In this document: one piece after another, positions 18,361 to 64,000 of the stretch | Position numbering within the stretch: the stretch's first letter is position 1 | Layout: every line of letters starts with the position of its first letter | Assembly: GCF_002224125.1 (NCBI RefSeq) | Contig: NZ_NCSM01000002.1 | Location: 1 to 64,000, forward strand | From: Streptomyces sp. NBS 14/10 | Lineage (GTDB): Bacteria > Actinomycetota > Actinomycetes > Streptomycetales > Streptomycetaceae | Length of the DNA: 64,000 nt | Reading direction: 5' to 3' | Translations under genes and position numbers: made by a program | Notes under the pieces: generated by a model | The model's database searches: none | What the model saw: only the letters and a program-made list of their open reading frames with translations | Told to the model about the DNA's origin: nothing

Positions 18361-20916
18361 TCAGGCCTGGCCGGTGTGGCGGGCGGCCGCGCGCTGGGCG
18401 CGCCGGGAGGTCCGGATGCCGTCCTGCTGCGACGGGGACTCCTCGACCAGGCCGAGGACGATGGCCAGGTGCTCGGAGAAGGAGCGGATCGTGGGGTACT
18501 CGACGAACGCGGACGCCTCGACCTGCTCGCCCAGCGCGTCGCCGAGGTGAGCGGTGACGTCGATCAGGATGAGCGAGTCCAGGCCCATGTCGAACAGATT
18601 GCGGTCGGTCTCCGGGAGCCCGCCTGCCTCCCCGCCCAGGACCGTGGCGATCTTTTGCTGCACGAACTCGGTGATGATGTCGACACGTTCGTGCCCGACA
18701 GCCGCGGCGAGCCGCTCGGTCAGGGTGTCGGGCTCCGGTGTGCGCCGCGCGGTGCGGTGTTCCGGTTCGACCCAGTGGCGCGTGCGCTCGAACGGGTAGT
18801 GCGGCAGCGGGACACGGCAGCGCTGCTCGTCGCCGTAGAACGCGTCCCAGTCGACGTCGGCTCCCGCGGTCCACACCGTCGCCAGGTCGTGTGCGGTGCG
18901 GTGCAAGCCGGGCGGAGCGGTGCCGTCGGGCTGGAGGCGCAGCAGCAGGGCGCCCGGGGGAGTGTCGGAGGGCGTCGGCGGAACGCCGGTCCAGGTGGCC
19001 GGGTCCGTGTCGAGCAGGCGCAGTGCCTCCGGGGCGGTGAGCTCGCCGGACAGGCAGGCGGCGACGAGCCGGGCTACCGGGCCGCCGGTCACGGCGGCGG
19101 GCCGCACACCCCACGCGGTGAACAGGCGGGCGGCGGCCAGCTGGGCGACCAGGGCCGCTGCCGCGTCGTCGGAGCCCAGCAGCGCTTCGGCGTCCGTGCC
19201 CTCCGTGCCCTCCGTGCCGGTCACTGCCTGGATTTCCGCGCGGTAGGCGGGCAGTGCGCGCAGCAGCGCCACGGCGTGGGTGCCGCCGTCCCCGAGTCGG
19301 TCGGCCACGCCGTAGACCACGTCGGGGCGGTCGTCCGCGACATCCCCGGTGATCAGCTGCTCGCGGTCCGCGAGGGCGAGGGCGAGGGCCGCCTCGCGCA
19401 GGTCGGAGCAGACCACGGCGCAGCGGTGACGATGGGCACGGCGGCCGACGCCGAGGGTCTTGGCCACGTCGGCGGGCGAGAGCTCCGGATGCTTCCGCAG
19501 GTGCCGGGCCAGGTCGGCCATGGCCCGCTGCAGGGCCTGCGGCGAGCGGGCCGAGAGCACCAGGAGCTCGGCCGGGCGGGGCTCGGACGGCGCCGGGCGG
19601 GCCGGCGGCGCCTCCAGGACGACATGCGCGTTGGTGCCGCCGATCCCGAACGCGCTGACGCCGGCGCGGCGCGGCGCGCCGGCGGTTGCGGGCCAGTCGG
19701 TGAGTTCGGTGGCGACGTGGAACGGCCCGGCATCGAAGTCGATCTCCGGGTTGGGCGACTCGAAGTTCAGGCTGGGGACCAGCTCGCCATGGCGCAGCAT
19801 CAGCGACGTCTTGATCAGGCCCGCCATGCCCGCGGCGACGTCGAGATGGCCGATGTTGGTCTTCACCGAGCCGATCGCGCAGCGGCCGCTCGCCTCGGTG
19901 TCCTCGGTGAACACGGTGTTGAGCGCGGTCACTTCGATGGGGTCGCCGAGCGGTGTGCCCGTGCCGTGCGCCTCGAGGTATCCGATGGTGTGCGGCGGGC
20001 AGTCGGCGATCTGCTGGGCGTCGCGGATGACGGCCGCCTGGCCCTCGACGGTCGGAGCGGTGTATCCGGCCTTCGCCGCACCGTCGTTGTTGACGGCGGT
20101 GCCCTTGATGACCGCGTGGATGAAGTCGCCGTCGGTGAGGGCGTCGCGCAGCCGCTTGAGGACCACCACACCGACGCCGTCCCCGACGATGGTGCCCTGC
20201 GCCTTGGCGTCGAAGGCGCGGCAGTGTCCGTCCGGGGAGAGGATCATGCCTTCCTGGTAGCGATACCCCTTCCGCTGGGGCACCTTGATGTGCACCGCCC
20301 CGGCCAGTGCCGTGTCGCAGTCGCCGCTGATCAGGCTGAGGCAGGCGGTGTGCACGGCGACCAGCGAGGTGGAGCACGCGGTGTTGACGCTGAGACTGGG
20401 GCCCCGCAGGTCCAACTTGTAGGACACCCGGGTGGCCAGGAAGTCCTTGTCGTTGGCGAGCATCAGCCGGTAGTCGTCGAGGGTGGAGGCGTCGCGGTAG
20501 CGGTCGTGGAGGTTGTGCAGCAGGTACGTGTTCAGGCCGGCGCCCGCGTACACGCCGATGGCGCCGTCGTAGGCGCCGGGATCGTATCCGGCATCCTCCA
20601 GCGCTTCCAGGGCGCATTCGAGGAACTGCCGTTGCTGCGGGTCGAGTATCTCCGCCTCGTCCGCGGTGACACGGAAGAGGTCGGCGTCGAACTGGTCGAT
20701 ATCGGGCAGCAGTTGGGCGGCCTTGACATAGCTCGGGTCATTGATGAGCTGCGGATCCACGCCCGCGGCGAGCAGTTCCTCGTCGGACAGGTAGGTCGTC
20801 GACTCCACGCCCTCCCGCAGATTGCGCCAGAAGGCATCCACGGAGGGAGCGCCCGGCAGCCGGCATGCCATGCCGATGATGGCGATATCGGATTCCCTGA
20901 TGTCGTGCTGGTCCAT
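18361..20916 (-). CDS. Stand-alone PKS module: KS - vestigial AT - ACP
   Basis: An 851-residue protein. KS at residues about 9-440 with active-site Cys181 in NTACSTSL, EAHGTGTPLGDP and KTNIGHLD complete the triad. Residues about 530-640 are an AT remnant (AQLAAARLFTAWGVRP, VAACLSGELTAPEALRLL) in which the GHSxG motif reads GGPVA, with Pro613 at the serine position. The linker PHYPFERTRHW follows, then an ACP with Ser781 in MGLDSLILID. No KR or DH, so it leaves a beta-ketone. ATG at 20916 with GAAGGAGG, 11 bp after the PP-loop gene. It would extend glycyl from the preceding NRPS with malonyl supplied in trans; the ketone is what oxazole closure needs. In architecture it corresponds to OzmQ of oxazolomycin (from memory). 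Confidence 0.9.
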   Translation of the reverse strand: MDQHDIRESDIAIIGMACRLPGAPSVDAFWRNLREGVESTTYLSDEELLAAGVDPQLINDPSYVKAAQLLPDIDQFDADLFRVTADEAEILDPQQRQFLECALEALEDAGYDPGAYDGAIGVYAGAGLNTYLLHNLHDRYRDASTLDDYRLMLANDKDFLATRVSYKLDLRGPSLSVNTACSTSLVAVHTACLSLISGDCDTALAGAVHIKVPQRKGYRYQEGMILSPDGHCRAFDAKAQGTIVGDGVGVVVLKRLRDALTDGDFIHAVIKGTAVNNDGAAKAGYTAPTVEGQAAVIRDAQQIADCPPHTIGYLEAHGTGTPLGDPIEVTALNTVFTEDTEASGRCAIGSVKTNIGHLDVAAGMAGLIKTSLMLRHGELVPSLNFESPNPEIDFDAGPFHVATELTDWPATAGAPRRAGVSAFGIGGTNAHVVLEAPPARPAPSEPRPAELLVLSARSPQALQRAMADLARHLRKHPELSPADVAKTLGVGRRAHRHRCAVVCSDLREAALALALADREQLITGDVADDRPDVVYGVADRLGDGGTHAVALLRALPAYRAEIQAVTGTEGTEGTDAEALLGSDDAAAALVAQLAAARLFTAWGVRPAAVTGGPVARLVAACLSGELTAPEALRLLDTDPATWTGVPPTPSDTPPGALLLRLQPDGTAPPGLHRTAHDLATVWTAGADVDWDAFYGDEQRCRVPLPHYPFERTRHWVEPEHRTARRTPEPDTLTERLAAAVGHERVDIITEFVQQKIATVLGGEAGGLPETDRNLFDMGLDSLILIDVTAHLGDALGEQVEASAFVEYPTIRSFSEHLAIVLGLVEESPSQQDGIRTSRRAQRAAARHTGQA
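19003..19327 (-). other. Vestigial acyltransferase region in the KS-ACP protein
   Basis: Residues about 530-638. Recognisable by the FTAWGVRP and VAACLSGELTAPEAL blocks that flank the AT active site, but the catalytic Ser is Pro613 and the His is Gly; the large second half of an AT is missing. Confidence 0.75.
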
Positions 20917-20927
20917 CTCTGCCTCCT

Positions 20928-22064
20928 TCAGGCGAGCTTGATTCCCATACGGGTGGCCGTCGTGCGCATGTCGAGAAAACTGCGGGCCACGAAGTGGGCC
21001 GCGTTCTCGTCTCCATGGAGTTCCCTGAAGATCTCGACCAGCGCCGGCTCGTGTTCCCGCGGGTCGGTATCACCCCGGGCAATGTCGAAGATGATGTCCT
21101 GGAGACGCTGCTCGATGTCCGGCAGATTCGCCGCGCGCGGGAACTTGATGCTGTAGGTGGAGCGGTCGTAGTTCTTGTTCTTTTTCACCGCGCGCAGGTA
21201 ACTGGAAGCATTCAGCTTGTAGAACATGCAGCCCCAGTTCTTGAACGAGTAGTAGTTCAGCAGCGGATACAGGGTGCAGTGGGTCTCCAGCGGCGAGGAC
21301 TGGTAGAGCCCCTTTTCCTTCAGTTCCCGCACCATCGCGTCGGGGTCGTAGTCGTAGCGCATCGCGATGAACGGGAAGACGATTTTCGGAAGTTCCTCGT
21401 CGGTGGCGAACAGTACGTTCTCCAGTTCCTCCCCGAAGAGCCGGCCCGTCAGCTCGCGGCCGAAGGTCTCGTAGAAACCGCGCGCGATCTCTCGGACGTT
21501 GGACTCCATGGTGAGGATCTGCTGCGGGTCCGCGCACAGGGCGATGTACGGGATCTTGTTGCGGATCGCGCAGAGGATGGCCCGGATGACGAAGAACGTC
21601 CGACAGGACACGCACGGCAGTTTCTCGTCGAGATATTCTCCGGGCTTCTGCGGCGCGGCCCGGTTGAAGACGTCGCGCATCATCGTCGTGATACCGGCCT
21701 CGTCGGAGTCCAGCACGAAATGCGCGGGGATCTTCTCTTTCGCCAGTTTGATGTTGTCGGCGGCGTGCTCGCTCTCGAAGGGGATGTCGAAGGTATAGGC
21801 AAGGACACGCTTGCCGTATTCGTTGACGAACTTGTCCAGCATGTACGTGCTGTCCTTGCCGCCGCTGTACATGAACAGGCAGTCGAACTCGCCGTCGAGG
21901 TTGGGGCCGGCGGCGGTGAACTCCTCGAAGACCCGGTTGGTGTAGGTGAAGTTCTCCAGCAGTTCATCAGCCACTTCGAGGTTGCACAGGTTGCAGGTCC
22001 CGTTCTCGTCCAGGGTGATGCCCGGGTGGCCCTCTTGCAGAGAGCACACGGCGCAGTGGGCCAT
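20928..22064 (-). CDS. PP-loop ATP pyrophosphatase, candidate oxazole-forming cyclodehydratase
   Basis: A 378-residue cytosolic protein of the N-type ATP pyrophosphatase superfamily. The PP-loop is FMYSGGKDSTYML near residue 68; an N-terminal CAVC ... CNLC pair and a central LPCVSCR suggest a metal site, as in N-acetyl-sugar amidotransferases (WbpG-like). It lies between the glycine NRPS and the KS-ACP gene, separated by 60 and 11 bp. In oxazolomycin and conglobatin pathways, a protein of this kind (OzmP, CongE; from memory) is proposed to activate the amide oxygen of an N-acylglycyl-ketone for ring closure to oxazole. Activation by adenylation suits that role. Alternative: amidation or thiolation of an acyl group. 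AAGGG precedes the ATG. Confidence 0.85.
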   Translation of the reverse strand: MAHCAVCSLQEGHPGITLDENGTCNLCNLEVADELLENFTYTNRVFEEFTAAGPNLDGEFDCLFMYSGGKDSTYMLDKFVNEYGKRVLAYTFDIPFESEHAADNIKLAKEKIPAHFVLDSDEAGITTMMRDVFNRAAPQKPGEYLDEKLPCVSCRTFFVIRAILCAIRNKIPYIALCADPQQILTMESNVREIARGFYETFGRELTGRLFGEELENVLFATDEELPKIVFPFIAMRYDYDPDAMVRELKEKGLYQSSPLETHCTLYPLLNYYSFKNWGCMFYKLNASSYLRAVKKNKNYDRSTYSIKFPRAANLPDIEQRLQDIIFDIARGDTDPREHEPALVEIFRELHGDENAAHFVARSFLDMRTTATRMGIKLA

Positions 22065-22124
22065 GGGTCTTTCCCTTCACGGATGGTGGTACGTGGAATG
22101 ACGCGGGCGGCATGACGTGTGTCG

Positions 22125-25100
22125 TCAGGTGGCGGTGGGGCCCGTTCCCCTCGTGGTGCGTCTGCGGCGCAGCCGTTCCAGCGACTCGCGCCGGGCCCGG
22201 GTCGGCCGGGCAGCGGCGGCCGGTCGTTGACCGACCGGCGGTGCGGCGAGGTGGCGGGCCATCTCGCCGACGGTGGGATAGCGGAACACGTCGACGCGGG
22301 TGACCGACGGATCCAGCGTGTCCCGCAACTCCTTGACCACGTGCATCAGCAGAAGGGAATTGCCGCCCAGGTCGAAGAAGTTGTCGCGCGGGCCGACCAG
22401 GGGCACGCCGAGCACCCGGCGCCAGACGGCGGCGACCGCCCGCTCGGTGTCGCTGGCGAGCGCGTCCGGCCCCGCCTGGGCTCTGCCCGGCCCGGCCTGG
22501 GCCGGGCCGGGCAGGGCCTTGCGGTCGACCTTGCCGTTGTGGGTGAGCGGCACCTCGTCCAGAACGACCACGGCCGCCGGCACCATGTAGCCGGGCAGCA
22601 CACCGCGCAAGGCGTCGCGCAGTGCCGCGGTGTCCGGTTCCGTACCGGGGCCGGCCACCACGTAGGCGACGAGCCGACGGTCGCCGGGGCTGTCCTCGCG
22701 GACCACCGCGACCGCCTCCCGGATGCCCTGCCGGGCGCGCAGGTGGTGCTCGATCTCGCCCAGTTCGATGCGGTAACCGTGCAGCTTGACCTGGCTGTCG
22801 ATGCGATTGAGGTACTCCAGCCGGCCGTCGGCCAGCTGCCGGACGAGGTCGCCGGTCCGGTACATCCGCCCGCCGCCGGGCCCGAACGGATCCGGTACGA
22901 ACCGCTCGGCGGTGAGCTCGGGCCGCCCGAGGTATCCGTCGGCCACACCGTCCCCGCCGATGTACAGCTCCCCCGGTGTCCCCGGAGCGACGGGTTGGCC
23001 GAAGCGGTCCAGCACATAGCAGCGGGTGTTCGCCAGGGGACGGCCGATCGTCACCCGGTCACCGCGTTCGACGCGGCAGACCGTCGACCAGATGGTGGTC
23101 TCGGTGGGCCCGTACAGGTTCCACAGTTCCCCGGCCCTGGCGAGGAGTTCCCCGGCCAGGTCCGACGGCAGCGCCTCACCGCCGCACAGCGCCTTCAGGC
23201 CCGGATGTCCCGTCCAGCCCGCGGTGAGCAACATGCGCCAGGTGGCGGGCGTGGCCTGCATCATGGTGGGCCGGGTCCGCTCCAGCAGGGCTCCCAGGGC
23301 GAAGCCGTCCGCCGTTGTCCCGGCCGGCGCGATCTCCACCCGCGCACCCGTGATCAGCGGCAGGTACAGCTCCAGTCCCGCGATGTCGAAGCACACGGTG
23401 GTCACGGCCAGCAGCCGGTCGTGCTCGGCGCAGCCGAGCTGCCGGGTCATGGCGCACAGGAAGTTCGTCAGCGCGCGATGCCCGATCCGCACGCCCTTGG
23501 GGCTCCCGGTGGAGCCCGAGGTGTACATGACGTAGGCCGGGTCATCGGCAACGGCCGGGACGCACCGGCCGGCCGGGCGTTCCCGGTCCTCGTCGAGGAG
23601 CAGCAGGTCGGCGCGTACGCCGCTCAGGGCGGGCCGCAGCGCGGACTCGGTGACCACCAGTCGCAGTCGCGCGTCGTCGGCCATGGCGGCGATGCGCTCC
23701 GGCGGGTACACGGGGTCGAGGGGGACGTAGGCGGCACCCGACTTCAGCACGGCCAGCAGACCGACCAGCAGTTCCGGGGAGCGGTGCAGGGCCACGCCGA
23801 CGAGCTCACCGGGGAGGGCACCACATGCGGCGAGTTCGGCCGCGAGCCGGTCGGACCGCTCGTCCAGCTCCCGGTAGGTGAGCGTGCGGTCCCCGCAGGC
23901 GACGGCGACGGCGTCGGGGCGGCGCCGGGCCTGGCCGGTGAAGAGCTGGTGCACGCAGAGGTGGGACGGGTAGTCGGCCGCGGTGTCGTTCCACTCCTCC
24001 AGCACACGTACGCGCTCGTCGGGTGTCAGCTCCGCCACCTCGGTCACCGGTCGGCCGGGGTCGGCCGCGACGGCGTCGAGGAAGGCCGCGAACCGCGCGG
24101 CCGCCGCCGGGTCCGGGTCCGCCCAGCGCACCCACGAGCCGTCCTCGGCGATCCGCACGAGCCGGGTCGTCGCGTCACCGGTCGCCTCGTCGGGGAACGC
24201 GGCGCCGCCCGGGGCGGGTCCGGTGTGCAGTTCGATGCGGACCGGCCAGCCTGCCGTCCGCGGATCCCGGGCGGGGACGCCCATCGTCTCGTCGTCGTGC
24301 AGGAGGGACCGCACCTCGTCGTGGATCCGGGCGAAGGGCCTGCCGTCGGCGATGAACGGCAGGGGGAACGGAACGTGGGTCGCCACCGCCGGGTGGGGCG
24401 GGCAGGCGGCCAGCTGCCGCCAACGCAGGGCGACCCCGGTGTCGGCCTCCTCCGTGCCGCGGGAGACGAAGGCCAGGACCGCGGCGAGCAGCAGCTCCGG
24501 ATCGGCCATGTGCCGGGTGTCAAGACGGACCACGTGGGCAGGCCCTGTGGGGTCGGCCTGGGGGCGGTTCAGCCGGGCCGTCCGCTCGGCCCAGTGCCGC
24601 TCCGCGTCGGGGCGGCACGCCGCCCGGCGCCGGGCCAGCGCGCCCGAGACCGGGCCGGTCCCGGCGCACAGGTCTCCGGTCGGCAGGTCGGGTGCCTCGA
24701 TCAGCGCCCTGAGCAGCGTCACCGTGTCGTGCAGTACCTGCCGGGCGACCTCGTCCGTCAGCTGCCGGCGGTCGTGGCCGAGTTTGAGGAGCAGCCGCTC
24801 GTCCTGATAGGCGCTGAGGGTGAGCGGGTAGTTGCTGCGTTCCTCCAGGTGGAAGTCGCGGTCCCGCCAGGCTCCGCCCCGCTGCCGCAGCTCGGCCTGG
24901 ACGGTACGGCTTTCGAAGACGACGACGCTGTCGAACAGGGCGGAGCCGTCCGGGACGGCGCTGAGCCGGTGGATGCGGGGCAGCTCGATGTGCTCGCCGC
25001 GACGCAGGGCGAGATGCCCCTCGCGCAGGGCGCGCACCAGGTCGGCTCCGGTGGCCGAGGCGTCGAGAACCACGCGCAGCGGCAGGGTGTTGATCAGCAG

Positions 25101-44934: not shown

Positions 44935-45794
44935 CAGAGGCCGACCGCGTAGGTGTAGAAGCCGCGCCCGCTCTTGCGGCCCAGCTCGCCGTCGGCCACC
45001 TTCCGCCGCAGCAGCTCGCAGGGGCGGCAACCGTCGTCGCCGGTGCGCTCGTACAGCACCTCCAGCGAGTCCACCAGGTTGTCGATGCCGATCAGGTCGG
45101 CGGTGCGCAGCGGCCCGGTGCGGTGTCCGAGGCAGTCCTGCATCAGCGTGTCGACGTCCTCGGCGGTGGCCCGTCCCTCCTGGACCACCCGCGCCGCGTC
45201 GTTGATCATGCGGTGCAGGACCCGGCTGGTGACGAATCCGGGGCCGTCGCCGACCCGGACGCCGCGCCGGTCGAGCGCGGCGAGCAGCCGCTCGACCGAG
45301 GCCAGGGCCCGCTCGCCGGTGCGGGAGCCGCGGATCACCTCGACCGTGCGGATCAGGTACGAAGGGTTCATGAAGTGCACCCCGAGCAGGTTCTCGGGGT
45401 GCGGCAGCTGCTGCGCGAGCTCGTCCACCGGGATGGACGAGGTGTTGGTGACCAACGCCGTGTCCGCGCCGACCACCGCGCCGACCTCGGTGAGCGCCTT
45501 GACCTTCAGGCCGGGCTCCTCGGTGATCGCCTCGATCACCACATCCGCGCCTCGGCATTCGGCTGCCGAGGAGCGGATCAACAGCTCTCCCTGGGGTAAG
45601 TCGGGCCGGGCGCCGAGGAGTTGGGCCGTCCGCAGCTCGCGCTCGACCCTGGCACGGGCCCCCGCGCGCTTCTCGGGGTCGGTCTCGACCAGGACGACGG
45701 GGACACCGTGGATCAGGGCCAGGGTCGTGATGCTGGTGCCCATGACACCGGCCCCCAGTACGGCCAGCCGAGGGGTCGGCTCTTCCTTGCTCAC
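44934..45794 (-). CDS. 3-hydroxyacyl-CoA dehydrogenase-like enzyme (FkbK-like)
   Basis: A 286-residue NAD-dependent dehydrogenase. The Rossmann motif [13 protein letters not shown] is at the N-terminus; [43 protein letters not shown] (catalytic His), [15 protein letters not shown] and KSGRGFYTY follow. It oxidises the glyceryl-ACP alcohol in methoxymalonyl-ACP formation. I choose the GTG at 45794 because GGAGG lies eight bases upstream and the Rossmann fold begins soon after. It is the first gene of the leftward operon, opposite the giant PKS/NRPS gene. Confidence 0.92.
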
Positions 45795-46449
45795 CACATA
45801 CCTCCGCCAGTGCGGTTCAACAGTGGATCGAACGGACAGCAACCCGGGCGGGTCTCGTCGTCGGCATGAGGGAGAGGCCGGAAAGACTCGATGCCCAGCG
45901 GCAGACGGATCGTAAGCACGCCATTCCGGAAAACGCCACCTGCCCCCGTGCGAGATGACTCACAAATACGGCGCCATTTTCTCATATCGGCGCGTCGGCG
46001 TGGACCCTATCACGTGCCTTCTGGGGGGCGCCAGGCAGCATTCTGGGGCGAATGCCGGTGGGCCGCTGTGCTACTGGGATCCCTGACAACCTGTTTGTTT
46101 GTCCGCACAGTGAGGGTGAATCGGATGGCGATTGGGGTGGATAGGAGGTAGGGGTGAACATGGGGTGTTTCGCTCTGAATGAGCATCAGAAACCGCTGAT
46201 CAAAAGATGGTTGCCGCGGCTTGATGTCTGATGTTACGTTGCAACGGCGATTCAAACTGACGGGGAGCGACTACCGAGAGTAGTTCGCGGACAGTGATGC
46301 CGACGGGGGCAGGGCTGAAGTCATTCGACTTTTATTGCGCGTTTAACCAATGATTCTTCTTTCGCTGTGCCGCCCTGCGGAGCAGCGCTTTGAGTGTGCC
46401 GTCATAAACGTTCCAGCCATGAGTCACTGTGACCACGAGACAAAGGCCT
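45795..46449. promoter_or_regulatory. Divergent promoter region of the biosynthetic cluster
   Basis: 655 bp between the two oppositely directed biosynthetic transcripts. It is clearly poorer in G+C than its surroundings, especially 46070-46440, which fits promoters and regulator sites for both directions. It also holds an isolated Shine-Dalgarno and a 25-codon frame. I see no perfect palindromic operator. Confidence 0.6.
46154..46231 (+). CDS. Possible 25-codon leader peptide
   Basis: GGAGG at 46144-46148 stands five bases before a GTG (46154) and eleven before an ATG (46160) in the same frame. The frame encodes about MGCFALNEHQKPLIKRWL plus five residues and stops at 46231, some 220 bp before the giant gene. 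No stem-loop pair typical of attenuation is evident. It could be chance. Confidence 0.25.
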   Translation: MNMGCFALNEHQKPLIKRWLPRLDV

Positions 46450-58400: not shown

Positions 58401-61400
58401 GCGCGACGGTGGGATGACCATCGACGCCGAGGCACGGCAGGCGATGCGGCGCGCGTTCGGCATGGAACCGCTGCCGACCGAGGCCGCCCTCGACGCGCTG
58501 GAAGGCGCGCTGGCGAGCGGGGCCTCCCACGTCCTGCTGACCGCGGGCGACCGCGGCCGCATCGAGGAGGCCCTGCGGCGGGAGCCCGTGGACCCGGCGC
58601 CGCGGACAGCCGTGGAGACGGCACCGGCACTCCCGGAGCAGCCGACCGGCGATCTGCGGGGCCCCGCCGAGGAGTTCCTGCGCGGGCTGCTGGCCGCCGA
58701 GCTGAAGATGGCGGCCGACGACATCGCCGCGGACGAGTCCTTCGAGCACTACGGCATCGACTCGCTGCTGGTGCTCAGCCTCACCCGCGAGCTGGAGCGG
58801 CACTTCGGCCCGCTGTCCAAGACGCTGTTCTTCGAGTACCTGACCGTCGCCGAGCTCGCCGAGTTCCTGGTCGAGCAGCACGGTGAGACGCTGCGGGAAG
58901 TCGTCGGCCCAGGGCGCCAGGACGAACACCGGCCGTCGGCCGTCGCCAACGCGGCCGTGCCCGCGAGCGCCGTGCCCGCGGTCGCGGTGCCCGTGGCCAC
59001 CGCGACCGCCCGGGTCGAGCCCGCCCCGGCGCCCGTGCCCGCGCCCACCCCCGCCGAGGACGAGATCGTGATCGTCGGGGTGGCCGGACGCTATCCGCAG
59101 GCCGACGACCTCGGGCAGTTCTGGCGCAATCTGCGGGAGGGCCGGGACTGCGTCGAGGAGGTCCCCGAGGACCGCTGGGACCACGACCGGTTCTATGACC
59201 CGGACCGCGACGCCCCGGGCAAGACCTACGCCAAATGGGGCGGCTGGCTCTCCGACGTCACCTCCTTCGACCCGATGTTCTTCCGCATGTCCCAGGTGGA
59301 GGCGGAGCACATCGACCCGCAGGAGCGGCTCTTCCTGCAGACCGTGTGGCATCTGCTGGAGGACGCCGGCACCTCCCGGGCCGCGCTGTCCCGGGTTCGC
59401 ACCGGGGTCTTCGTCGGCCTGATGTACGGCCACTACCAGCTGTACGGGGTCGACGAGGCGCTGCGCGGGGTCGGCGCGGCCACCTCGTCCTCGTACGCCT
59501 CGGTGGCCAACCGGGTGTCGTACTTCTTCGACTTCGACGGGCCGAGCATCGCCCTGGACACCATGTGCTCGTCCTCGCTCACCGCCCTCCACCTCGCCTG
59601 CCAGGCGATCCGGGACGGGGACTGCGAGGCGGCGGTGGCCGGCGGCGTCAACGTCTCCAGCCACCCGGTGAAGTACCTCCAGCTCGCCAAGGGCGGCTTC
59701 CTGTCCAGCGACGGCAGGTGCCGCAGCTTCGGCGCGGGCGGCGACGGCTATGTGCCCGCCGAGGGGGTCGGCGCGGTGCTGCTCAAGCGCCGCTCGGCGG
59801 CCGAGGCGGACGGCGACCGCATCCTGGCCGTGATCAGGTCCACCGCGGTCAACCACGGCGGGGCCGGCAAGGGCTTCAGCGTGCCCAACCCCAAGGCCCA
59901 GGGGGTGCTGATCGGCCAGGCCCTGGACCGGGCCGGTCTCGCCCCCGCGGACCTGGACTACCTGGAGGCGCACGGTACCGGCACCTCGCTCGGCGACCCG
60001 GTCGAGATCACCGGGCTGCTGCGCGGCTTCCAGGGCCACGACCTGGACGGCGTGCGCATCCCGCTCGGCTCGGTGAAGTCGAACATCGGCCACGCCGAGT
60101 CGGCGGCGGGCATCGCTGCGCTCACCAAGGTGCTGCTCCAACTGCGCCACCGGGAGCTGGTGCCCTCGCTGCACGCCGAACGGCTCAACCCCAACCTCGA
60201 CCTGGACGCCACCCCGTTCCGGGTGCAGCGCGAGCTGACCGAGTGGACCCCGCGGGTCGACCCGGCCGGCCGGCCGCTGCCCCGCACCGCCGGGATCAGC
60301 GCGTTCGGGGCGGGCGGCAGCAACGCCCACGTGATCCTGGAGGAGTACGTGTCGTCCAGCCCGAGCCCCGAGGAAGCCCCGCCGCCCTATGTGTGCGTGC
60401 TCTCCGCCCGTGACGAGGAGCGGCTGGCCGAGCACACCGCGCGGACGGCCGAGTACCTGCGCGGCGAGGGGCGCCACGCGCACCCCGCGGCGCTCGCCCG
60501 GACCCTGCAGACCCGCGAGCCGCTGGCGCGCCGGCTGGCCGTGGTCTTCGCGGACGTCGAGGACCTGGCGGGCGAACTCGAACGCCATCTGTCCGGCGGC
60601 TCGCCCCGGGTCCTGACCGGCACCGCCGCCCGCTCCGCCGCACCGCCCGCGAATCGTACGGCGCATGAGCTGGCCGCGGCCTGGGTGCGCGGCGCGAAGG
60701 TCGAGTGGCCCGGCGGCGGCCCGCGGATTCCGCTGCCCGGCTATCCGTTCTCCCGTGAGCGCTGCTGGCTGCCCGCCGCCGACGCGGTGCGCACGCCCGC
60801 GCCCGCCGCCGACGCAATACGCACGCCCGCGCCCGCCCGGGACCGCGACCTGCGGGGCGAGGTGCTGCTCTCGGCCGACACGCCGGTCATCGCCGGACAC
60901 CGGGTGCAGGGCCGGTCCCTGTTGCCCGCGCTGGGCTACTTCGACCTCGTCGCGGGCGTCTTCCGCGACCACGGCCACCCTCTCGGAGAGCTGACGTTCC
61001 GTGACCTGACCGCGCTGCGGCCGCTGGACGTGACGGACGGGCCGGTGACCGTGGAGATCCGGGGCACCGTCTCGGGGTCCGGCCGCTGGCAGGTCACCGT
61101 CGCCGACGGCGAGCCGTACGCCAGGGCCGAGGTCGAGCTGACCGGCGCGGCCCCCTTCGCGGACCGGCTGTCCCTGAGCCGTCCGCAGGGCGCCCCGCGG
61201 ACGCTGGCCGAGATCTATCGGCGGGACGGGGGCAACGGCCAGCAGTACAGCGGCGCGGCACGGGCCGAGGGTCTGCTGTGGACCGACCCGGAACAGCTGG
61301 TCGCCGAACTCACCGCGGCGCCCGGCGACCACCTGGTGCACCCGGCCCTGCTGCTCGGCGGCGCGGTCGCGGCAGGCTCCCTGCTGGACACCGGCGGTCA

Positions 61401-64000
61401 GGCGTTCCTGCCGCTGCACGTGGCCTCGTTCCGTACGAACGGCCCGCTGACAGGGAGTTCGACGGCCCGGGTGCGGCGCTCCTCGGTGAGCCGGCGCGGT
61501 GAACTCGTCCGGCTCTCCGTGGACTTCTTCGACGAGACCGGCCGACAGGTGGCCGAGATGTCCGGGCTGTCCAGCAAGGCCGTACGGACCGCCGCCCCGG
61601 CCGCCGTGTCCGGTGCCGGGCCTGCCGCCGAGCCGGAACCGCGGCCCGGCGCGGCCGACGGAGTCCGGGACCGGCTGCGCCGGCTGGTGGCCCGTCACCT
61701 GGGCCGCGAGCCCGGGGCGATCCCGGTCGACGCCGGGTACTACGAGCTCGGGATCGACTCCGTGCAGGTGCTGGAACTGGCCGACGAGCTGCACCGCGAG
61801 GTGGGCCGGGAGCTGGACCCGACGCTCCTCTTCGAATACACCACCATCCGTGAGCTGGCCGCCCACCTCGCCGAGCGGTATCCGGACGCGTTCGTACCGC
61901 TCGACGCACCGGCACCGGCCGAGAGCCCCGCACCGGTCCGGCCCGGACTGCCGAGCGGGCTGAGCCGGATCGAGGCGGCCACGCACATCCCGCCCGCCCC
62001 CGCCCAAACCGGCCTCACAGCGGACGAGCTCGACCGTCTGATCGCCGCCCGGGTACTGGCCCGGCTACGCGAGTCCGGCGCGTTCGCAGAGGGCCGTGGC
62101 GAGTCGCTGACCGGGCTGGCAGACCGGCTGTCCGTCGTGGACAAGTACCGGCGCTGGCTGGAGGAGGCCGCCCGGCTGCTCGACGCCGCGGGCCTGGCAC
62201 GGCTGCGCGACGGCGTCCTGGAGCCGAGCGCCGGGCCGGCGGCCGGCGGCCCCACGTGGGAGGAGGCGCGCGAGCGCTTCGCCGCCGACCCCTACTGGGA
62301 CGCGCAGCTCTCCCTGGTGGGCGAGTGCGTGGACCGGCTGCCCGACATCCTGTCCGGCGCGCTGCCCGCCACCGACGTGCTGTTCCCCGGCGGCTCCATG
62401 GCCAAGCTCACCGCGGTCTACCAGGGCAACCCGGTCGCGGACCGGCTCAACGAGGTGGTGGCCGAGGCGGCCGCGGCGGCGGTGCGCGACCGCCTGGCCG
62501 AAGACCCCTCCGCGACGGTCCGGTTGGCCGAGGTGGGCGCCGGCACCGGGGGCACGACCGCCGTGGTCCTGCCCCGGCTCGACACACACGCCGAGCGGCT
62601 CGAGTACTGGTACACCGACCTCTCCCCGGCCTTCCTGGACCAGGCCGAGCGCCGCTTCGGGGCCGGACGTCCGTATCTGCGCTACGGCCGGTGGAACGTG
62701 GAGCAGCCGGACGCGGGCGAGCGGCTGACCGGCGGCGGCTGCGATGTGATCGTGGCGACCAACGTGCTGCACGCCACCCGGGACATCCGGCTGGTCCTGC
62801 GCAACCTGGCCGCCGCGCTGCGCCCGGGCGGGGTCCTGGTGATCAACGAGATCACCCGCAAGTCCGCGGCCCTGACGCTGACGTTCGGGCTGCTCGACGG
62901 CTGGTGGCTGTACGACGACGAGGAGGTCCGCACCCCCGGGGCGCCCATCCTCACCGGCGCCCGCTGGGAGGAGGTGCTGGGCGACAGCGGCTTCGGGGCG
63001 GTGTGGCGGCCCGTCGCGGCGCCGGACGCGTTCGGCGAGGTGTTCGCCGCGCAGCGGCCGGTCGAGGTCCCGGCGCCTGCCGGTACCCGGCTGCTGGCCC
63101 GCGAGTGGGAGCCGGCACCGGCCACCGAGGGCCGGCGCCCCACAGCGGTGGCGGTGCTCGGCGCCGGGCCCGCGGCCCGTCGGCTCGCCGAGGCCCTGCC
63201 CGACGCGACGTCGGTCGCCTCGGCGGCGGACCTGGACGACCGCTTCGACGCGCTGGTCGACCTGGGCGGACTGGCACTCGACGCATGGCTGCCGGCCGTG
63301 CAGCGGATGGCCGGGCGCGAGGCCCTGCTGCTCGGTGTGGGCTCGGGCGATGCCCGGTCCGGGCTCTACCGGATGCTGCAGAGCGAGTACGGCCGCGTCA
63401 GGTCCCGCTATCTGGAAACGGATCCCGCGGACCCCGAGCTGCCCGGCCTGGTCGCCCGGGAGCTGGCCGACGGGGGCGAGGACGCCGAGGTCAGCTACCT
63501 GGACGGGGTGCGGCACCGGGCCCGCCTCGCCGAACTGCCGGTCGGCACCGGCGCCCCGGTCCGCTTCCCGGCCGACGAGGCGCTGCTGATCACCGGCGGC
63601 ACCCGGGGCATCGGCCTGGCGCTCGCCCGCCACGCAGTGGATCGGTGGGGGGCCCGCACCCTGGTGCTCACCGGCCGCGAGCAACTGCCCCCGCGCGAGG
63701 AGTGGGACCGCCACGGTCCGGACACGGCGCTCGGCCGAAAGCTGCGCGGGCTGCGGGAGCTGGAGCGGGACGGGGTTCGGCTCCGGGTGCTGTCGCTGCC
63801 CCTGGGCGAGGACCCGGCCGCCGTGTGCGAGGCGGTGGCCGGGGTCCGGCGGGAGCTGGGCCCGATCGGCGGGGTGCTGCACGCCGCCGGTCTGGTGGAC
63901 CGGGAGAACCTGGCGTTCGTCGGCAAGCCGGTCGAGGCGGTGCGCGCGGTGCTGGCGCCGAAGACGGCCGGTCTGGACGCGCTGGTGGACGCGGTGGCGG
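46450..64000 (+). CDS. Giant hybrid trans-AT PKS/NRPS (partial, runs off the window)
   Basis: Open without a stop from ATG 46450 (AAAGG five bases ahead) to 64000, at least 5,850 codons; motif positions below all agree with one frame. Module A: KS (Cys197, His332, His377), serine-less ACP-like insert, KR, C-methyltransferase (GAGTGATT near 1380), ACP Ser1621. Module B: C (HHIVFDG 1819-1825), A with code D-I-L-Q-L-G-M-I-W-K (glycine), PCP Ser2665. Module C: KS Cys2921, DH (DHVVGEERVLP; LLDGALQ), KR, ACP Ser4105. Module D: KS Cys4373, DH-like (HRVQGRSLLP but no catalytic Asp), ACP Ser5104, then MT (GAGTGGTT near 5362) and KR that is cut by the edge. No AT anywhere. It would add a beta-hydroxy-alpha-(di)methyl unit, glycine and then dienyl/methylated units, as OzmH does in oxazolomycin. 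Confidence 0.95.
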   Translation, partial: MDDKRALLLKLLASVQERAAPGATAEREDIAVIGLAGRYPSARTPDELWSNVVEGRNCVREVPADRWRIDEHYHPDGQGGRSYSKWGGWLEDVDKFDPLLFQISPSDAEEMDPQERLFLETVWATIEDAGYRPRGLGAGNPVGVFAGVMNNDYEWLAGESSAFGVHTNARSAHWSIANRVSYVLDLRGPSLTVDSACSASLTAVHLACESLRRGECRVAVAGGVNLILHPMHLRMLADRQMISHGDQCRSFGADADGFVDGEGVGAVLLKPLSAAEADGDRIYAVLKGSAINAGGRTSGYTVPNPTAQAEVIRAAMRRGQVDPRTVTYVEAHGTGTPLGDPIEIAGLREAFRDESGAVSGAGGGGCAIGSLKSNIGHLESAAGIAALAKVLMQLKHGVLPPSLHSAELNPDIDLSKTPFRVQQEAEPWARPVLRDRDGREVEFPRRAGISSFGGGGANAHLVVEEYRDSRPRTRDGGDAELIVLSALTEERLRAYAGELADFLGRRSTTGASLTSTTGASLTECARTAAEVLRVRPEDLDPDLDLVDHGFGAAELVALSERLGLDHTVSGEMSLRDLAGEAGDGPAPALADVAHTLRVGREELDVRLAFPATGLDRLRELLRAVAAGEAADVELNDASRTRRSQDGDAGDRLARALAEGDLRTAARLWTEGAPADWPDTGARRIGLPTYPFARKRYWIPLPAGHVGPAPAPAPVLARATGRTTTEALRHPEPAPTDRPPVPPNGPELGYYEPIWCPEDQTAPVPPAAEPHRVAVLTPGEPDDLARALLRHHPGARLFRLDRDDPAALLAEPVGHLYHLGGTRLPDTSDGGLRDGVLALFRTGVTQGRLTVVTAGAHEDNPYAAGILGFAQVMAAECPGLDITCVDVSDTDPEQALAAVLAEPPHPAGRAVLVRAGHRHVRRLVAAPLPAPERSPYRTGGTYLVVGGTGGIGQALSLDLASRHGANLVWLSRGEPGPEQQETARRVREAGGRLLHLRADVADPAALREAVAETKQRFGALHGVFHAAMTFNTSTIAELTEPELRAAIAAKVDGSLALAAAVAGEPLDFLAFFSSVGSYVSAAGNAAYVAASTFQDAYGRLLATERPYPVRVINWGYWGRTGSGAQPGLQQIFQKTGVAEFSVREGLDALERVLAGSLVQVMPIRADRRVLEAMGLRRSALAERIGRPATAGAGADAVVAGYERLTALCESVLLGVYQRMGALLRPGERHTVSGLADRLGIVPKYHRLHSALLNILADAGHLTVRGDEVEVASAPDESDPHRWDGEFDRIAADHPDIAATVTLTRLFLRSYPEVLRGEVVATEIMFPGGSMELVQDFYRGNPLTDSFNELVARAVAEHARAALPALGAGQRLRLVEFGAGTGATTDRVLPVLSAHADRVEYVFTDISPEFLDSAERRFGARYPFTRFRTLNLELGLAGQGFEPGSVDVVVATNVVHATSDLRATLRKARELLRPGGWLVLNELTAIRAGITVTGGVLDGWWAFADGELRIKDAPLAHPGTWQRLLVEEGFTDTLVLDRGPRLGQHVIVGENAARPAPATAPAVSAAAAAAVRPVSADATVADPDPDPDPAPLLPRLAVIFEAALKLDQPLDPDRPLSEYGFDSLSGTRIAGVIEEDLGVRVRLGDLLQHPTLRGLADHLAEKGVNGAGPAAAPPAPEEPAHRQEPVEPVSFPLSVGQRALSVIERTAPGNYAYNLPLAFWLDPDVDVAALRAALRSMVDRHPQLRARVVGEQQVVAAADPGGELAFTERRLDTSSTGDLDAVREAARACVREPFDLAAGPLLRATLFGLADGRHVLLLTFHHIVFDGVSIPVFLRELSAFYRQSPPAGAPKATFADFVREQQDLLASERGERLRAYWLRQLAGELPAPRLPLDRPRPVVPSYRGASLEGRLEAGPIEAAGRLADDEGTSLFCVLLAAYVTLLHGYAPGDRVLVGTPVAGRPSPQYADVLGYFMNMVVLKHDLDPEQDFRTLLRGVRDTVLEALEHSDYPLLTLAQELRAPGRLFDTAFYFQNWVKDGGDTAPVAGVFPGVHQEGEFDITLEVVEEPEGARYCLKYNPDLFDEDTVRRLGERFAQLLDAALAEPGAPLDRLTRRAGGERARADQAPLAGRRAVHDGRTLPQLLAEQARRTPDAVAVSDPDTELTYRQLMERVERLAGRLRRRGVAPGRTVGVLVHRSHDMLVALLGVLAAGGAYVPLDPDYPAERLRYMAEDAGLRLLVTQSSARADLGAEVVLLDEPGDDPSLAVDGRPAQSAATPDDPAYVIYTSGSTGRPKGVEVPHRALTNLLLSMAEEPGLTADDHLLALTTVCFDIAGLELFLPLITGGRVEIVPTHIARDGVLLRRLLEAGRATVVQATPATWKMLLAAGWRGNSGLKVLCGGEALDQDTAQELLARAGQVWNMFGPTETTIWSTVCRLAPGDRVTIGHPIDNTQLHVLDTHGRPVPAGVPGELYIGGTGLATGYLGRPELTAQRFVTMAGDRRYRTGDLVRTLPDGRVEYLGRLDAQVKVRGFRVEPGEVESVLRGRPGVREAVVVARRVGGENVLYGFLVLEDGATVPPRDALAEHLPAHLVPDALVALASLPQTLNGKVDRGRLTDLPLDELRGTSAPERPAVAVGTGELAGMIADILGIDVSQVRPDAPLGELGMNSVSFTALSTRIGERYGIEVLPTLFYRFPTLTAVAAHLAGGGAADPAAYDSGAYDTGADVRADAGRAGVAESTVRPAPERSAPGLSAPGRPGGAGDIAIVGMAGRLPGSADLAEFWDHLEQGRDLVGEIPADRWDWRAHAGESRSRWGGFLTDVDRFDAAFFSVSPREAELMDPQQRLLLEVVWSAIEDAGYRASDLAGKRVGVFIGTTNSDYPEVQRAAGRAVDAHTLTGAAQSIIPNRISYLLDLRGPSVAVDTACSSSLTAVHQAVAALRDGSCDLAIAGGVSLILDPGLYAALSQGEMLSEDGRCKAFDAAANGYVRGEGVGVVVLRDHAAARRDGDPVAAVIKATAVGHGGRTTSLTSPNPNAQTELLVEAYRAAGIDPRTVGYIEAHGTGTALGDPIEFGALKQAFAELYGGAEPGAEPGAEAGGPRCGIGSVKTNIGHLEAAAGIAGLLKVVLALRHRTLPASLHFHEPNPYLELSGSPFEIVDSTRSWPAPVAADGTALPRRAGVSSFGFGGANAHVVIEEAEPASGSADSAEQQLFVLSARNERALREQARRLAAFVRAERPAVADVAHTLRCGREPMEHRLAFVARGRAELLDHLDAHAGGRTQPGALTGRVPAGPRRDATSRGAAWREYVRALCAERDLESLAQLWAEGADLSWSGMPPSRRIGLPAYPFERTRHWVESTAGSGRAALLDENVSTFGESAFAKRLTGAEFFLADHVVGEERVLPGVVYLEMARLAGERAHGAARVRRIDDVVWAAPVALAPGQCHDLRVAVAPSGAFDIAGEHPHARGTLVFEPAGEAGAAAERIDLAAVRSRCSRTRSRQEAYDYFESLGFRYGPSFRVIEELALDETEALARLRRPDVGDHRFHPSLLDGALQTAGWLVSGSVPHLPYSIGSVALRAELPEVCYAHVTVVRRRADGQVFDIALTAEDGTVVARIERFTLRAVSRPESGVHAFEPVWREPDGKKADTGAEVELLAVVDTGDGRAAELRGELLRLAPGLSVRVGDPGDPGAASHLVHLAPRGGLDEALRGGFHTALEVCRARIAGRGGPLRYLYVHGDEPGAAGAAHAALDGFARSIGQEHPGIRMTVLAHTGAASASAADLARLVLAELRGGEPELRVDGAGRTVRGWRPLTLPAAGASPLARDGAHIVTGGSGKLGRLVAHRIARHPGAGVVLVGRSEPPEDTPEGWLYLQADVGVRDDVERVVREARRRFGRVAGIVHAAGALRDSLALHKSGADADAVLAPKVRGLVLLDEATRRDQLDYFVAFGSTAAVFGNVGQTDYAFANSFLAHYLERRQPGRGLAVDWSLWRDGGMTIDAEARQAMRRAFGMEPLPTEAALDALEGALASGASHVLLTAGDRGRIEEALRREPVDPAPRTAVETAPALPEQPTGDLRGPAEEFLRGLLAAELKMAADDIAADESFEHYGIDSLLVLSLTRELERHFGPLSKTLFFEYLTVAELAEFLVEQHGETLREVVGPGRQDEHRPSAVANAAVPASAVPAVAVPVATATARVEPAPAPVPAPTPAEDEIVIVGVAGRYPQADDLGQFWRNLREGRDCVEEVPEDRWDHDRFYDPDRDAPGKTYAKWGGWLSDVTSFDPMFFRMSQVEAEHIDPQERLFLQTVWHLLEDAGTSRAALSRVRTGVFVGLMYGHYQLYGVDEALRGVGAATSSSYASVANRVSYFFDFDGPSIALDTMCSSSLTALHLACQAIRDGDCEAAVAGGVNVSSHPVKYLQLAKGGFLSSDGRCRSFGAGGDGYVPAEGVGAVLLKRRSAAEADGDRILAVIRSTAVNHGGAGKGFSVPNPKAQGVLIGQALDRAGLAPADLDYLEAHGTGTSLGDPVEITGLLRGFQGHDLDGVRIPLGSVKSNIGHAESAAGIAALTKVLLQLRHRELVPSLHAERLNPNLDLDATPFRVQRELTEWTPRVDPAGRPLPRTAGISAFGAGGSNAHVILEEYVSSSPSPEEAPPPYVCVLSARDEERLAEHTARTAEYLRGEGRHAHPAALARTLQTREPLARRLAVVFADVEDLAGELERHLSGGSPRVLTGTAARSAAPPANRTAHELAAAWVRGAKVEWPGGGPRIPLPGYPFSRERCWLPAADAVRTPAPAADAIRTPAPARDRDLRGEVLLSADTPVIAGHRVQGRSLLPALGYFDLVAGVFRDHGHPLGELTFRDLTALRPLDVTDGPVTVEIRGTVSGSGRWQVTVADGEPYARAEVELTGAAPFADRLSLSRPQGAPRTLAEIYRRDGGNGQQYSGAARAEGLLWTDPEQLVAELTAAPGDHLVHPALLLGGAVAAGSLLDTGGQAFLPLHVASFRTNGPLTGSSTARVRRSSVSRRGELVRLSVDFFDETGRQVAEMSGLSSKAVRTAAPAAVSGAGPAAEPEPRPGAADGVRDRLRRLVARHLGREPGAIPVDAGYYELGIDSVQVLELADELHREVGRELDPTLLFEYTTIRELAAHLAERYPDAFVPLDAPAPAESPAPVRPGLPSGLSRIEAATHIPPAPAQTGLTADELDRLIAARVLARLRESGAFAEGRGESLTGLADRLSVVDKYRRWLEEAARLLDAAGLARLRDGVLEPSAGPAAGGPTWEEARERFAADPYWDAQLSLVGECVDRLPDILSGALPATDVLFPGGSMAKLTAVYQGNPVADRLNEVVAEAAAAAVRDRLAEDPSATVRLAEVGAGTGGTTAVVLPRLDTHAERLEYWYTDLSPAFLDQAERRFGAGRPYLRYGRWNVEQPDAGERLTGGGCDVIVATNVLHATRDIRLVLRNLAAALRPGGVLVINEITRKSAALTLTFGLLDGWWLYDDEEVRTPGAPILTGARWEEVLGDSGFGAVWRPVAAPDAFGEVFAAQRPVEVPAPAGTRLLAREWEPAPATEGRRPTAVAVLGAGPAARRLAEALPDATSVASAADLDDRFDALVDLGGLALDAWLPAVQRMAGREALLLGVGSGDARSGLYRMLQSEYGRVRSRYLETDPADPELPGLVARELADGGEDAEVSYLDGVRHRARLAELPVGTGAPVRFPADEALLITGGTRGIGLALARHAVDRWGARTLVLTGREQLPPREEWDRHGPDTALGRKLRGLRELERDGVRLRVLSLPLGEDPAAVCEAVAGVRRELGPIGGVLHAAGLVDRENLAFVGKPVEAVRAVLAPKTAGLDALVDAVA
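47967..48014 (+). repeat. 24-bp tandem duplication in the KS linker
   Basis: Two head-to-tail 24-bp copies (47967-47990, 47991-48014) differing at one base, coding twice for STTGASLT. It sits exactly at the junction between the KS linker and the ACP-like insert. Confidence 0.9.
48015..48220 (+). other. Serine-less ACP-like insert between KS and KR
   Basis: Residues about 522-590 read like a carrier domain (CARTAAEVLRVRPEDLDPD, then VDHGFGAAELVALSERL), but the GxDS site is GFGAA: Ser is replaced by Ala, so it cannot carry phosphopantetheine. The usual LADVAHTLRVGRE linker resumes after it. Confidence 0.75.
55690..55725 (+). repeat. Three 12-bp in-frame repeats inside KS of module C
   Basis: GGC GCG GAG CCG repeated three times with small changes, coding GAEP-GAEP-GAEA in the loop before the KS histidine motif TNIGH. 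A surface-loop expansion. Confidence 0.85.
60781..60840 (+). repeat. 30-bp tandem duplication in the KS-DH linker of module D
   Basis: Two 30-bp copies coding DAVRTPAPAA and DAIRTPAPAR, between the PFSRERCW linker end and the DH-like domain. Confidence 0.88.

What the first reader, a model, noticed from the sequence alone, without database searches (positions are those of the whole stretch)
18361..64000. Oxazolomycin/inthomycin-type assembly line read from domain order
Seen: Gly NRPS, KS-ACP without reduction, three DH-KR modules with C-methylation in the last, KS-KR-MT-ACP, second Gly module, KS-DH-KR-ACP, KS-DH*-ACP-MT-KR, plus FkbG-K-like genes. Known: oxazolomycin consists of a 5-substituted oxazole-CH2-triene, a beta-hydroxy-alpha,alpha-dimethyl acyl group, a glycine amide and a methoxy-bearing right half, made by an AT-less line using methoxymalonyl-ACP. 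The match is unit by unit. Inference: this locus makes an oxazolomycin-family compound, possibly a variant.
Basis: partly seen in the sequence, partly recalled or inferred. Interest (0 to 1): 0.8.

Follow-up and report, generated by a model that had tools for sequence, protein, structure and literature searches.

The report
Oxazolomycin-type line with swapped starter
A Streptomyces gene cluster looks built to make an oxazolomycin-like antibiotic, but the part that should put a formyl group on the first glycine is replaced by a condensation domain, which could explain how rare methyl-bearing oxazole rings are made.

Summary
The window carries most of a trans-AT PKS/NRPS cluster that runs on to contig base 92025, where further modules, a Ser NRPS and a discrete tandem AT lie. 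Ketosynthases here match the solved OzmQ KS1, OzmN KS2 and OzmH KS7 of the oxazolomycin synthase at the expected places, and 4opf, recalled as OzmH KS8. The family call stands. One unit does not match: the glycine loading module has no formyltransferase (F) domain but a condensation (C) domain with intact HHxxxDG, then a relic half-C, A(Gly) and PCP. Of 44 named loci with an OzmP-type oxazole cyclase, 39 have F, 3 have C, 2 cannot be told. The relic sits before A in both types, so F and C look like exchanged front ends. Best reading: the C domain acylates PCP-bound glycine, most likely with acetyl, and the OzmP homologue closes a 2-methyl-oxazole; methylated oxazoles are reported for curromycins, neocurromycin and noaoxazole (PMC11022428). 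The swap is shown; donor and product are inferred. Against: the C domain's nearest solved relatives are not starter domains.

The parts
18361..20916 (-). OzmQ-like KS1-ACP protein (851 aa), first extension module
   Evidence: Pfam KS and ACP; best solved relative 4oqj over residues 5-850, 906 bits, titled S. albus oxazolomycin OzmQ KS1
20928..22064 (-). OzmP/CongE-like ATP-dependent oxazole cyclodehydratase (378 aa), SGGKDS motif; function as proposed in the literature
   Evidence: sequence; homologues named OzmP by NCBI, 94% to Streptomyces sp. NPDC050619; SGGKDS invariant in 22 of 22 aligned
22125..25982 (-). Loading NRPS (1285 aa from the conserved ATG at 25982): C domain, half-C relic, A (Gly code), PCP; takes the place of F-A-PCP OzmO
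   Evidence: no F domain found in contig bases 1-140000
24672..25946 (-). The C domain in place of the formyltransferase; motif SHHALMDGRSY
   Evidence: Pfam PF00668 225.7 bits; motif
23940..24671 (-). Half-C relic between C and A; also present before A in most formyltransferase-type loading modules
26041..40761 (-). OzmN-like PKS (4906 aa), KS2-KS4, three DH-KR modules, MT in the last
   Evidence: first KS matches 4wky at 865 bits, titled OzmN KS2
40783..41889 (-). FkbH/OzmB-like HAD-family protein
   Evidence: TIGR01686 FkbH 360 bits against cutoff 146.65
41900..42886 (-). KAS III-like protein (328 aa), OzmC position; likely acyl shuttle for methoxymalonyl
   Evidence: best solved relative ChlB3, 39.6 bits; position compared with the Laj/Ozm table in PMC10831120; function inferred
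42883..43989 (-). Acyl-CoA dehydrogenase, FkbI/OzmD-like
43976..44257 (-). Discrete ACP, FkbJ/OzmE-like
   Evidence: (ACP models, all below their curated cut-offs), position
44254..44934 (-). O-methyltransferase (226 aa), FkbG/OzmF-like
   Evidence: Pfam PF01596 233 bits; start
44934..45842 (-). 3-hydroxyacyl-CoA dehydrogenase, FkbK/OzmG-like
46429..64000 (+). OzmH-like PKS/NRPS giant (7855 aa; continues to contig base 69996): KS5-[ACP-like, no Ser]-KR-MT-ACP, C-A(Gly)-PCP, KS6-DH-KR-ACP, KS7-DH*-ACP-MT-KR-ACP, KS8 (no first His), KS9-KR-ACP
   Evidence: KS7 matches 4ope at 1117.5 bits (title OzmH KS7); KS8 matches 4opf at 775.5 bits

Best explanation
The locus is a complete-looking oxazolomycin-type trans-AT PKS/NRPS cluster (contig C40 bases 18361-92025) whose initiation has been changed. 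Shown by sequence: the loading module is C-(half C)-A(Gly)-PCP instead of F-A-PCP, while the oxazole cyclase and the later machinery are kept. Inferred: glycine is loaded on the PCP; the C domain acylates its nitrogen, most likely with acetyl from acetyl-CoA; the OzmQ-like KS1-ACP adds malonate; the OzmP homologue uses ATP to cyclise the N-acyl-glycyl unit to a 2-substituted (2-methyl) 5-alkyl oxazole; the three DH-KR modules make the triene; KS5-KR-MT gives the dimethylated hydroxyacyl unit; a second Gly, further modules with one methoxymalonyl unit and an N-methylated Ser give the right half, which the terminal C domain releases. Predicted product: an oxazolomycin with a methyl on oxazole C-2, C36H51N3O9, [M+H]+ 670.370 (taking oxazolomycin as C35H49N3O9, a recalled formula).
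For: C domain and half-C in the loading protein; five F-domain queries found nothing at E 1 in six frames of contig bases 1-140000, and gave 197 hits at E 1e-5 in frames of the 46 loci. F in other loci confirmed by Pfam PF00551 in 4 of 4 tested. Gly code in the A domain. HHxxxDG intact here; of 23 C domains listed (this one included) 22 reach across the motif and all 22 keep the second His; the first is Gln in P0142 and P0146; L013 is truncated. OzmP homologue adjacent, order N-O-P-Q. Half-C relic in 30 of 33 F-type loci (absent in L029, L032, L036) and 3 of 3 C-type loci (fold), so the front end seems exchanged on a common core. The C-type front occurs with the long line here and in S. milbemycinicus (OzmL-like protein 88%) and with a different, apparently shorter line in S. 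griseus NRRL WC-3645; methylated oxazoles in print are likewise of more than one kind. In the cluster I found no acyl-CoA ligase, and the only discrete carrier is the methoxymalonyl ACP, which favours a free acyl-CoA. The residue third after DG is Tyr; in RzmA the bulky R148 at that place sets acetyl (passages of PMC7804268; positions equated by me).
Against: The nearest solved relatives of the C domain are McyB C1, BacC and PvdL C3 (233-209 bits), which I take as extension domains, while the acetyl-using starter RzmA-Cs scores 55 bits and CDA-C1 33. A bulky residue at the RzmA R148 place is no proof: among the other C domains in the proteins, 19 of the 58 counted in the printed categories have Trp there, and many DGRS domains are not known to be linked to an oxazole cyclase. 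No donor is identified; in S. griseus NRRL WC-3645 a 1204-aa protein with A and ACP hits lies near its giant PKS and might load one. The Ser code does not predict the extra C-16 substituent that I recall for curromycins, so the product would not be curromycin itself. That the methyl of those oxazoles sits on C-2 is recalled. No compound is tied to this strain.
Confidence: 0.55

Rival explanations
1. Same C-type initiation, but the C domain takes another acyl group (propionyl, branched or fatty acyl, or a carrier-bound unit made elsewhere in the genome), giving an oxazole with another C-2 substituent than methyl.
For: Nearest solved relatives are C domains that take carrier-bound donors; donor not identified; an A-plus-ACP protein near the C-type cluster of S. 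griseus NRRL WC-3645 could load one there.
Against: No ligase and no spare carrier in the window's cluster; bulky Tyr at the RzmA R148 place, though that is weak; the passage I found names only methylated oxazoles.
Confidence: 0.24
2. The C domain is idle and glycine is formylated in trans, so the cluster makes an ordinary oxazolomycin.
For: The rest of the line is oxazolomycin-like; the line tolerates degenerate domains (a KS without its first His and three ACP-like units without Ser).
Against: HHxxxDG intact and the C domain 87-97% identical in the close group; no F domain found within contig bases 1-140000. The rest of the genome was not searched for F.
Confidence: 0.13
3. The real product is inthomycin-like and leaves the line after the second Gly, as proposed for phthoxazolin in a cluster that also has extra modules.
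For: PMC5764310 describes such surplus modules in ptx.
Against: The later genes are open and the Ser NRPS has relatives of 72-88% identity over its length in five of the 23 genomes searched.
Confidence: 0.08

Closest known systems
Oxazolomycin cluster (ozm), Streptomyces albus JA3453
   Same: KS1, KS2 and KS7 matched (and 4opf, recalled KS8), N-O-P-Q gene order, methoxymalonyl block, proteins of H-J-K-L-M kind in a row, tandem AT
   Different: Loading module has C plus half-C instead of the formyltransferase. KS1 is 63% identical to OzmQ KS1 in the structural alignment. I compared with solved KS chains and with tables in papers, not with the ozm record, which was not held
Phthoxazolin cluster (ptx), S. 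avermitilis
   Same: OzmP-type cyclase, KS-ACP, triene PKS, KS without His, ACP without Ser (PMC5764310)
   Different: F-A-PCP loading; Ser and Tyr NRPS modules and a P450 domain at the end
Conglobatin cluster (cong)
   Same: Loading NRPS-cyclase-KS order and SGGKDS cyclase (PMC4504003, passages)
   Different: F-A-PCP loading, cis-AT PKS, macrodiolide-forming thioesterase
Lajollamycin cluster (laj), S. qinglanensis
   Same: Proteins of H-J-K-L-M kind, NRPS of the same 2004 aa, methoxymalonyl genes (PMC10831120, passages)
   Different: Starts with PKS Laj4, no OzmO/OzmP entry in its table; has NOS and P450
Curromycins, neocurromycin, noaoxazole
   Same: Methylated oxazole, which C-type loading would explain (PMC11022428, passages)
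   Different: No gene cluster for them in the listings; the extra C-16 substituent of curromycins (recalled) is not predicted here
Methyl-oxazolomycins A-B (2024 terminal-oxazole study, named in PMC12299652, passages)
   Same: Oxazolomycins with an additional methyl by name, found through an SGGKDS cyclase screen
   Different: The place of the methyl is not given in what I saw, so I cannot tell whether the predicted product is already one of them
Rhizomide synthetase RzmA starter C domain
   Same: C domain at the front of a loading module that acylates the first amino acid; acetyl-CoA as native donor (PMC7804268, passages)
   Different: Sequence similarity low (55 bits)

Membership tests
Oxazolomycin-type trans-AT PKS/NRPS line | AT-less modules with a discrete tandem AT | tested here: met
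   No AT among Pfam hits of the PKS proteins; 1088-aa protein with two AT stretches at contig 88759-92025
Oxazolomycin-type trans-AT PKS/NRPS line | Corresponding KS domains in the same order | tested here: met
   4oqj, 4wky, 4ope, 4opf matched at the expected places; the multi-KS chain 7zma ranks first by whole-chain score; titles of the first three, 4opf recalled
Oxazolomycin-type trans-AT PKS/NRPS line | Methoxymalonyl-ACP genes | tested here: met
   Six genes 40783-45842
Oxazolomycin-type trans-AT PKS/NRPS line | Gly extension module and terminal Ser C-A-MT-PCP-C protein | tested here: met
   A-domain residues; the same Ser residues in 5 of 8 related loci examined, the other 3 gave no reading
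Oxazolomycin-type trans-AT PKS/NRPS line | Spiro beta-lactone-gamma-lactam product | not testable with these tools
   No culture or mass data
OzmO/CongA/PtxE-type formylglycine loading module (F-A-PCP) | N-terminal formyltransferase domain | tested here: not met
   C domain instead; F not found in contig bases 1-140000; so this loading module is not filed there
OzmO/CongA/PtxE-type formylglycine loading module (F-A-PCP) | Gly-activating A domain, PCP, adjacent OzmP-type cyclase | tested here: met
Starter C (Cs) domains of the RzmA/CdaPS1 kind | Front of a loading module, intact HHxxxDG | tested here: met
Starter C (Cs) domains of the RzmA/CdaPS1 kind | Sequence nearest to known Cs domains | tested here: not met
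   McyB, BacC, PvdL first; RzmA 55 bits, CDA 33 bits
Starter C (Cs) domains of the RzmA/CdaPS1 kind | Acyl-CoA as donor | not testable with these tools
   needs an assay

The most novel reading that the evidence does not exclude
OzmP-type terminal oxazoles have a second, general way of starting: a condensation domain in place of the formyltransferase, on a shared half-C-A-PCP core, makes N-acyl-glycine, so the cyclase builds 2-substituted oxazoles. This would be the genetic basis of the methylated oxazoles of the curromycin/noaoxazole kind and would occur from Streptomyces to Frankia and Actinosynnema.
Probability: 0.58. Interest if true: 0.6.

Novelty: new variant of a known kind. Interest (0 to 1): 0.47.

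Why it matters
It turns a chemical difference for which I found no genetic cause in print (methylated against plain oxazole) into a testable domain difference, points to a natural F/C exchange point, and says that OzmP-type cyclases may accept more than formylglycine. It also exposes a possible blind spot: the HSQC screen for terminal oxazoles described in PMC12299652 uses two C-H signals, one of which I take to be the C-2 proton, which a 2-substituted oxazole lacks.

Tried and rejected
Rejected: that the C domain is an artefact of gene calling (it is 92-93% identical in S. cuspidosporus and S. sparsogenes proteins and 88% in S. griseus NRRL WC-3645). Rejected: that the stretch between C and A is a new domain; it models as the second half of a C domain, and its profile also picks up the second half of intact C domains, though plain identity to those is only 19-28%. 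Inconclusive: whether the protein relatives of the C domain are starter domains; in 90 of the 120 listed hits the best C lies at the N-terminus with no A before it, but the search favours that by design. Weakened: the DGRS signature and bulky-residue argument, since Trp at that place is also seen in 19 of 58 other C domains counted in the printed categories. Weakened on re-check: I first called the C-type cluster of S. griseus NRRL WC-3645 inthomycin-like; its 7540-aa protein has five KS and runs past the second Gly, so I now say only that it is a different, apparently shorter line, and I lowered the best explanation from 0.58 to 0.55 and the novel case from 0.60 to 0.58 for that reason and for the Trp control. 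Led nowhere: plasmid collection search (scattered PKS similarity, no record with 80% of the query in one place); paper search for oxazoles from N-acetylglycine (none). Not done: a KS tree; a search of the rest of the genome for F domains; comparison with the ozm record and the original ozm papers, which are not held.
Full report
WHAT IS THERE. The window is bases 1-64000 of contig C40 (217653 bases) of a 12.1 Mb genome. The cluster runs from 18361 to 92025 of that contig. To its left is a pirin-like gene, to its right an NAD-dependent DNA ligase and an RPE65-family gene; I do not count these in. On the minus strand, read from the middle outwards, lie six methoxymalonyl-ACP genes (45842 down to 40783), then an OzmN-like triene PKS (40761-26041), the glycine loading NRPS (25982-22125), an OzmP-like oxazole cyclase (22064-20928) and an OzmQ-like KS-ACP (20916-18361). 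On the plus strand follow five proteins: 46429-69996 (7855 aa, OzmH-like), 69993-79025 (3010 aa), 79042-82710 (1222 aa), 82748-88762 (2004 aa, C-A-MT-PCP-C) and 88759-92025 (1088 aa, two AT stretches plus a nitronate-monooxygenase-like part). Gene limits are from open frames and base composition by codon position, with the starts of three genes shortened by eye.

DOMAINS. Twelve KS domains were found. All 12 have the catalytic Cys; 11 have the first His, and KS8 (residue 6132 of the 7855-aa protein) has lost it (ETNAAGS), while KS11 has a changed motif around it (EAHANGS). Of 18 carrier sites examined, 15 have a Ser motif and 3 do not. The loading and internal A domains read as Gly and the last as Ser (sequence; the ten-residue code and its GrsA numbering are recalled). 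The 3010-aa protein holds a module with DH, an ER-like alcohol dehydrogenase pair and KR, and a methyltransferase-like end below Pfam's cut-off.

FAMILY. phmmer against solved structures puts KS1 on 4oqj (906 bits), the first KS of the triene PKS on 4wky (865 bits), KS7 on 4ope (1117.5 bits) and KS8 on 4opf (775.5 bits). In some searches the multi-domain chain 7zma stands first by its whole-chain score. A Foldseek search with a model of KS1 (pLDDT 87.4) shows the titles OzmQ KS1, OzmN KS2 and OzmH KS7 of S. albus JA3453; that 4opf is OzmH KS8 is recalled. These KS numbers equal the ordinal position in this line. The methoxymalonyl genes and the right-hand proteins agree in kind with the Laj/Ozm table in PMC10831120 (passages). 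The KAS III-like gene in that block is nearest to ChlB3, at 39.6 bits; I infer an acyl-shuttle role for methoxymalonyl.

THE ODD UNIT. In print, OzmO, PtxE and CongA carry a formyltransferase domain (passages of PMC4979870 and PMC4504003, results section of PMC5764310). Here Pfam shows a condensation domain, then 244 residues without a Pfam match, then A and PCP. A scan of six frames of contig bases 1-140000 with five F domains found none at E 1; the same queries gave 197 hits at E 1e-5 in frames of the 46 loci.

HOW COMMON. With an alignment of 22 OzmP homologues the genome collection gave 46 loci; I dropped L057 and L058 (31% and 28% identity, partial), leaving 44. For 40 an A domain lies within 2.5 kb upstream of the cyclase: 33 carry F, 3 carry C (L013 S. 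milbemycinicus, L015 S. griseus NRRL WC-3645, L023 Candidatus Frankia californiensis), 4 were unclear in that frame. Of these four, L031, L050 and L052 have F in a neighbouring frame and L044 is truncated; of the four without an upstream A, L041, L048 and L049 have an F-bearing frame on the other strand nearby, and L014 (S. sparsogenes) starts at a contig end. So 39 F, 3 C, 2 unknown of 44. Close C-type loading proteins are named from S. sparsogenes, S. cuspidosporus, S. griseus and Streptomyces spp. NPDC050619 and NPDC050263, and a C-A-PCP one from Actinosynnema sp. CA-299493; six cyclase-loading pairs share a longest-contig length, from which I infer that they are neighbours.

TWO CONTEXTS. 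S. milbemycinicus has the C-type front (L013 matches window 18358-25259 at 96.9% DNA identity) and an OzmL-like protein of 88%, with one stop codon inside the match. S. griseus NRRL WC-3645 has the C-type front (N1 86%, cyclase 93%, triene PKS 81%), one 7540-aa PKS/NRPS with five KS, a second C-A-carrier unit and the KS-KS tandem, and a protein matching the window's AT protein (59% over 661 residues); nothing matching the 3010-, 1222- or 2004-aa proteins was called between its contig bases 26 and 103 kb, nor did the 2004-aa protein match in that genome at E 1e-200. I gave the genomes of 23 of the 44 loci. F-type relatives with an OzmL-like protein over its length are S. albospinus (77%), S. 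silaceus (75%), S. alfalfae (75%), Streptomyces sp. CoH27 (72%, one stop inside), and more distantly Streptomyces sp. CB02959 (55%) and S. diastatochromogenes (50%).

FUNCTION. [quoted passage not shown] A C domain that puts acetyl instead of formyl on glycine would give a methyl at C-2 after cyclisation. The precedent for an acetyl-CoA-using starter C domain is RzmA (passages of PMC7804268), where R148, third residue after DG, sets chain length; here that residue is Tyr. This is weak support: Trp at that place is seen in 19 of 58 other C domains counted in the printed categories, and DGRS domains occur in proteins not known to be linked to an oxazole cyclase. Against the acetyl reading, the domain is nearest to McyB C1, BacC and PvdL C3 among solved structures. 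I hold the swap itself as shown, N-acylation as likely, and acetyl as the most likely donor only.

LITERATURE LIMITS. The listings for curromycin, noaoxazole, Ozm names and terminal-oxazole clusters (one search showed 40 of 56 papers, one search showed 30 of 32) and the passages I opened showed no C-type loading module and no curromycin cluster. The library lacks most subscription journals, including the ozm papers and the 2024 terminal-oxazole study, of which I saw only a review's account, with methyl-oxazolomycins A-B named but not drawn.

Noticed in passing
L014:1-11623 against window 18359-22567 and 40772-47896: In S. sparsogenes ATCC 25498 the loading-cyclase-KS block joins the methoxymalonyl genes at the other end: L014 1-4186 matches window 22567-18359 (95.1%) and 4500-11623 matches 40772-47896 (95.8%). 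The N-O-P-Q block thus seems inverted between the two strains.
   Followed up: partly
L059:43-7558 against contig bases 81313-88742: The Ser NRPS is 89.8% identical in DNA to S. milbemycinicus although a 965-base stretch just upstream is 98.8% identical; this may mark recombination in that gene.
   Followed up: no
window 41900-42886: KAS III-like gene inside the methoxymalonyl block, nearest to ChlB3; candidate transferase of methoxymalonyl from its ACP to the PKS. The Laj table in PMC10831120 shows no such gene and a second AT (Laj12) instead.
   Followed up: partly
contig C40 64000-69996 (L009:1000-6993), protein residues 6132-6929: Two KS domains in direct tandem, the first without the catalytic His of HGTGT; a KS-KS tandem is also seen in S. 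griseus NRRL WC-3645.
   Followed up: partly
G318:C22:29302-32916: A 1204-aa protein with A and ACP hits near the C-type cluster of the S. griseus strain; role unknown.
   Followed up: no
L023:271-6057: Candidatus Frankia californiensis has a C-type loading protein without a detected PCP and a 421-base gap before the cyclase; a separate carrier gene may lie there.
   Followed up: no
L053, L051, L042: A Pseudomonadales MAG, a Telmatospirillum MAG and Enhygromyxa salina carry F-type loading modules with OzmP homologues, so this oxazole chemistry reaches beyond actinomycetes.
   Followed up: no
window 6264-16468: Sugar uptake and breakdown region: large laminin-G/Big_4 protein, LacI regulator, BPD-transporter permeases and an MGH1-like glycosidase; not counted in the cluster.
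   Followed up: no
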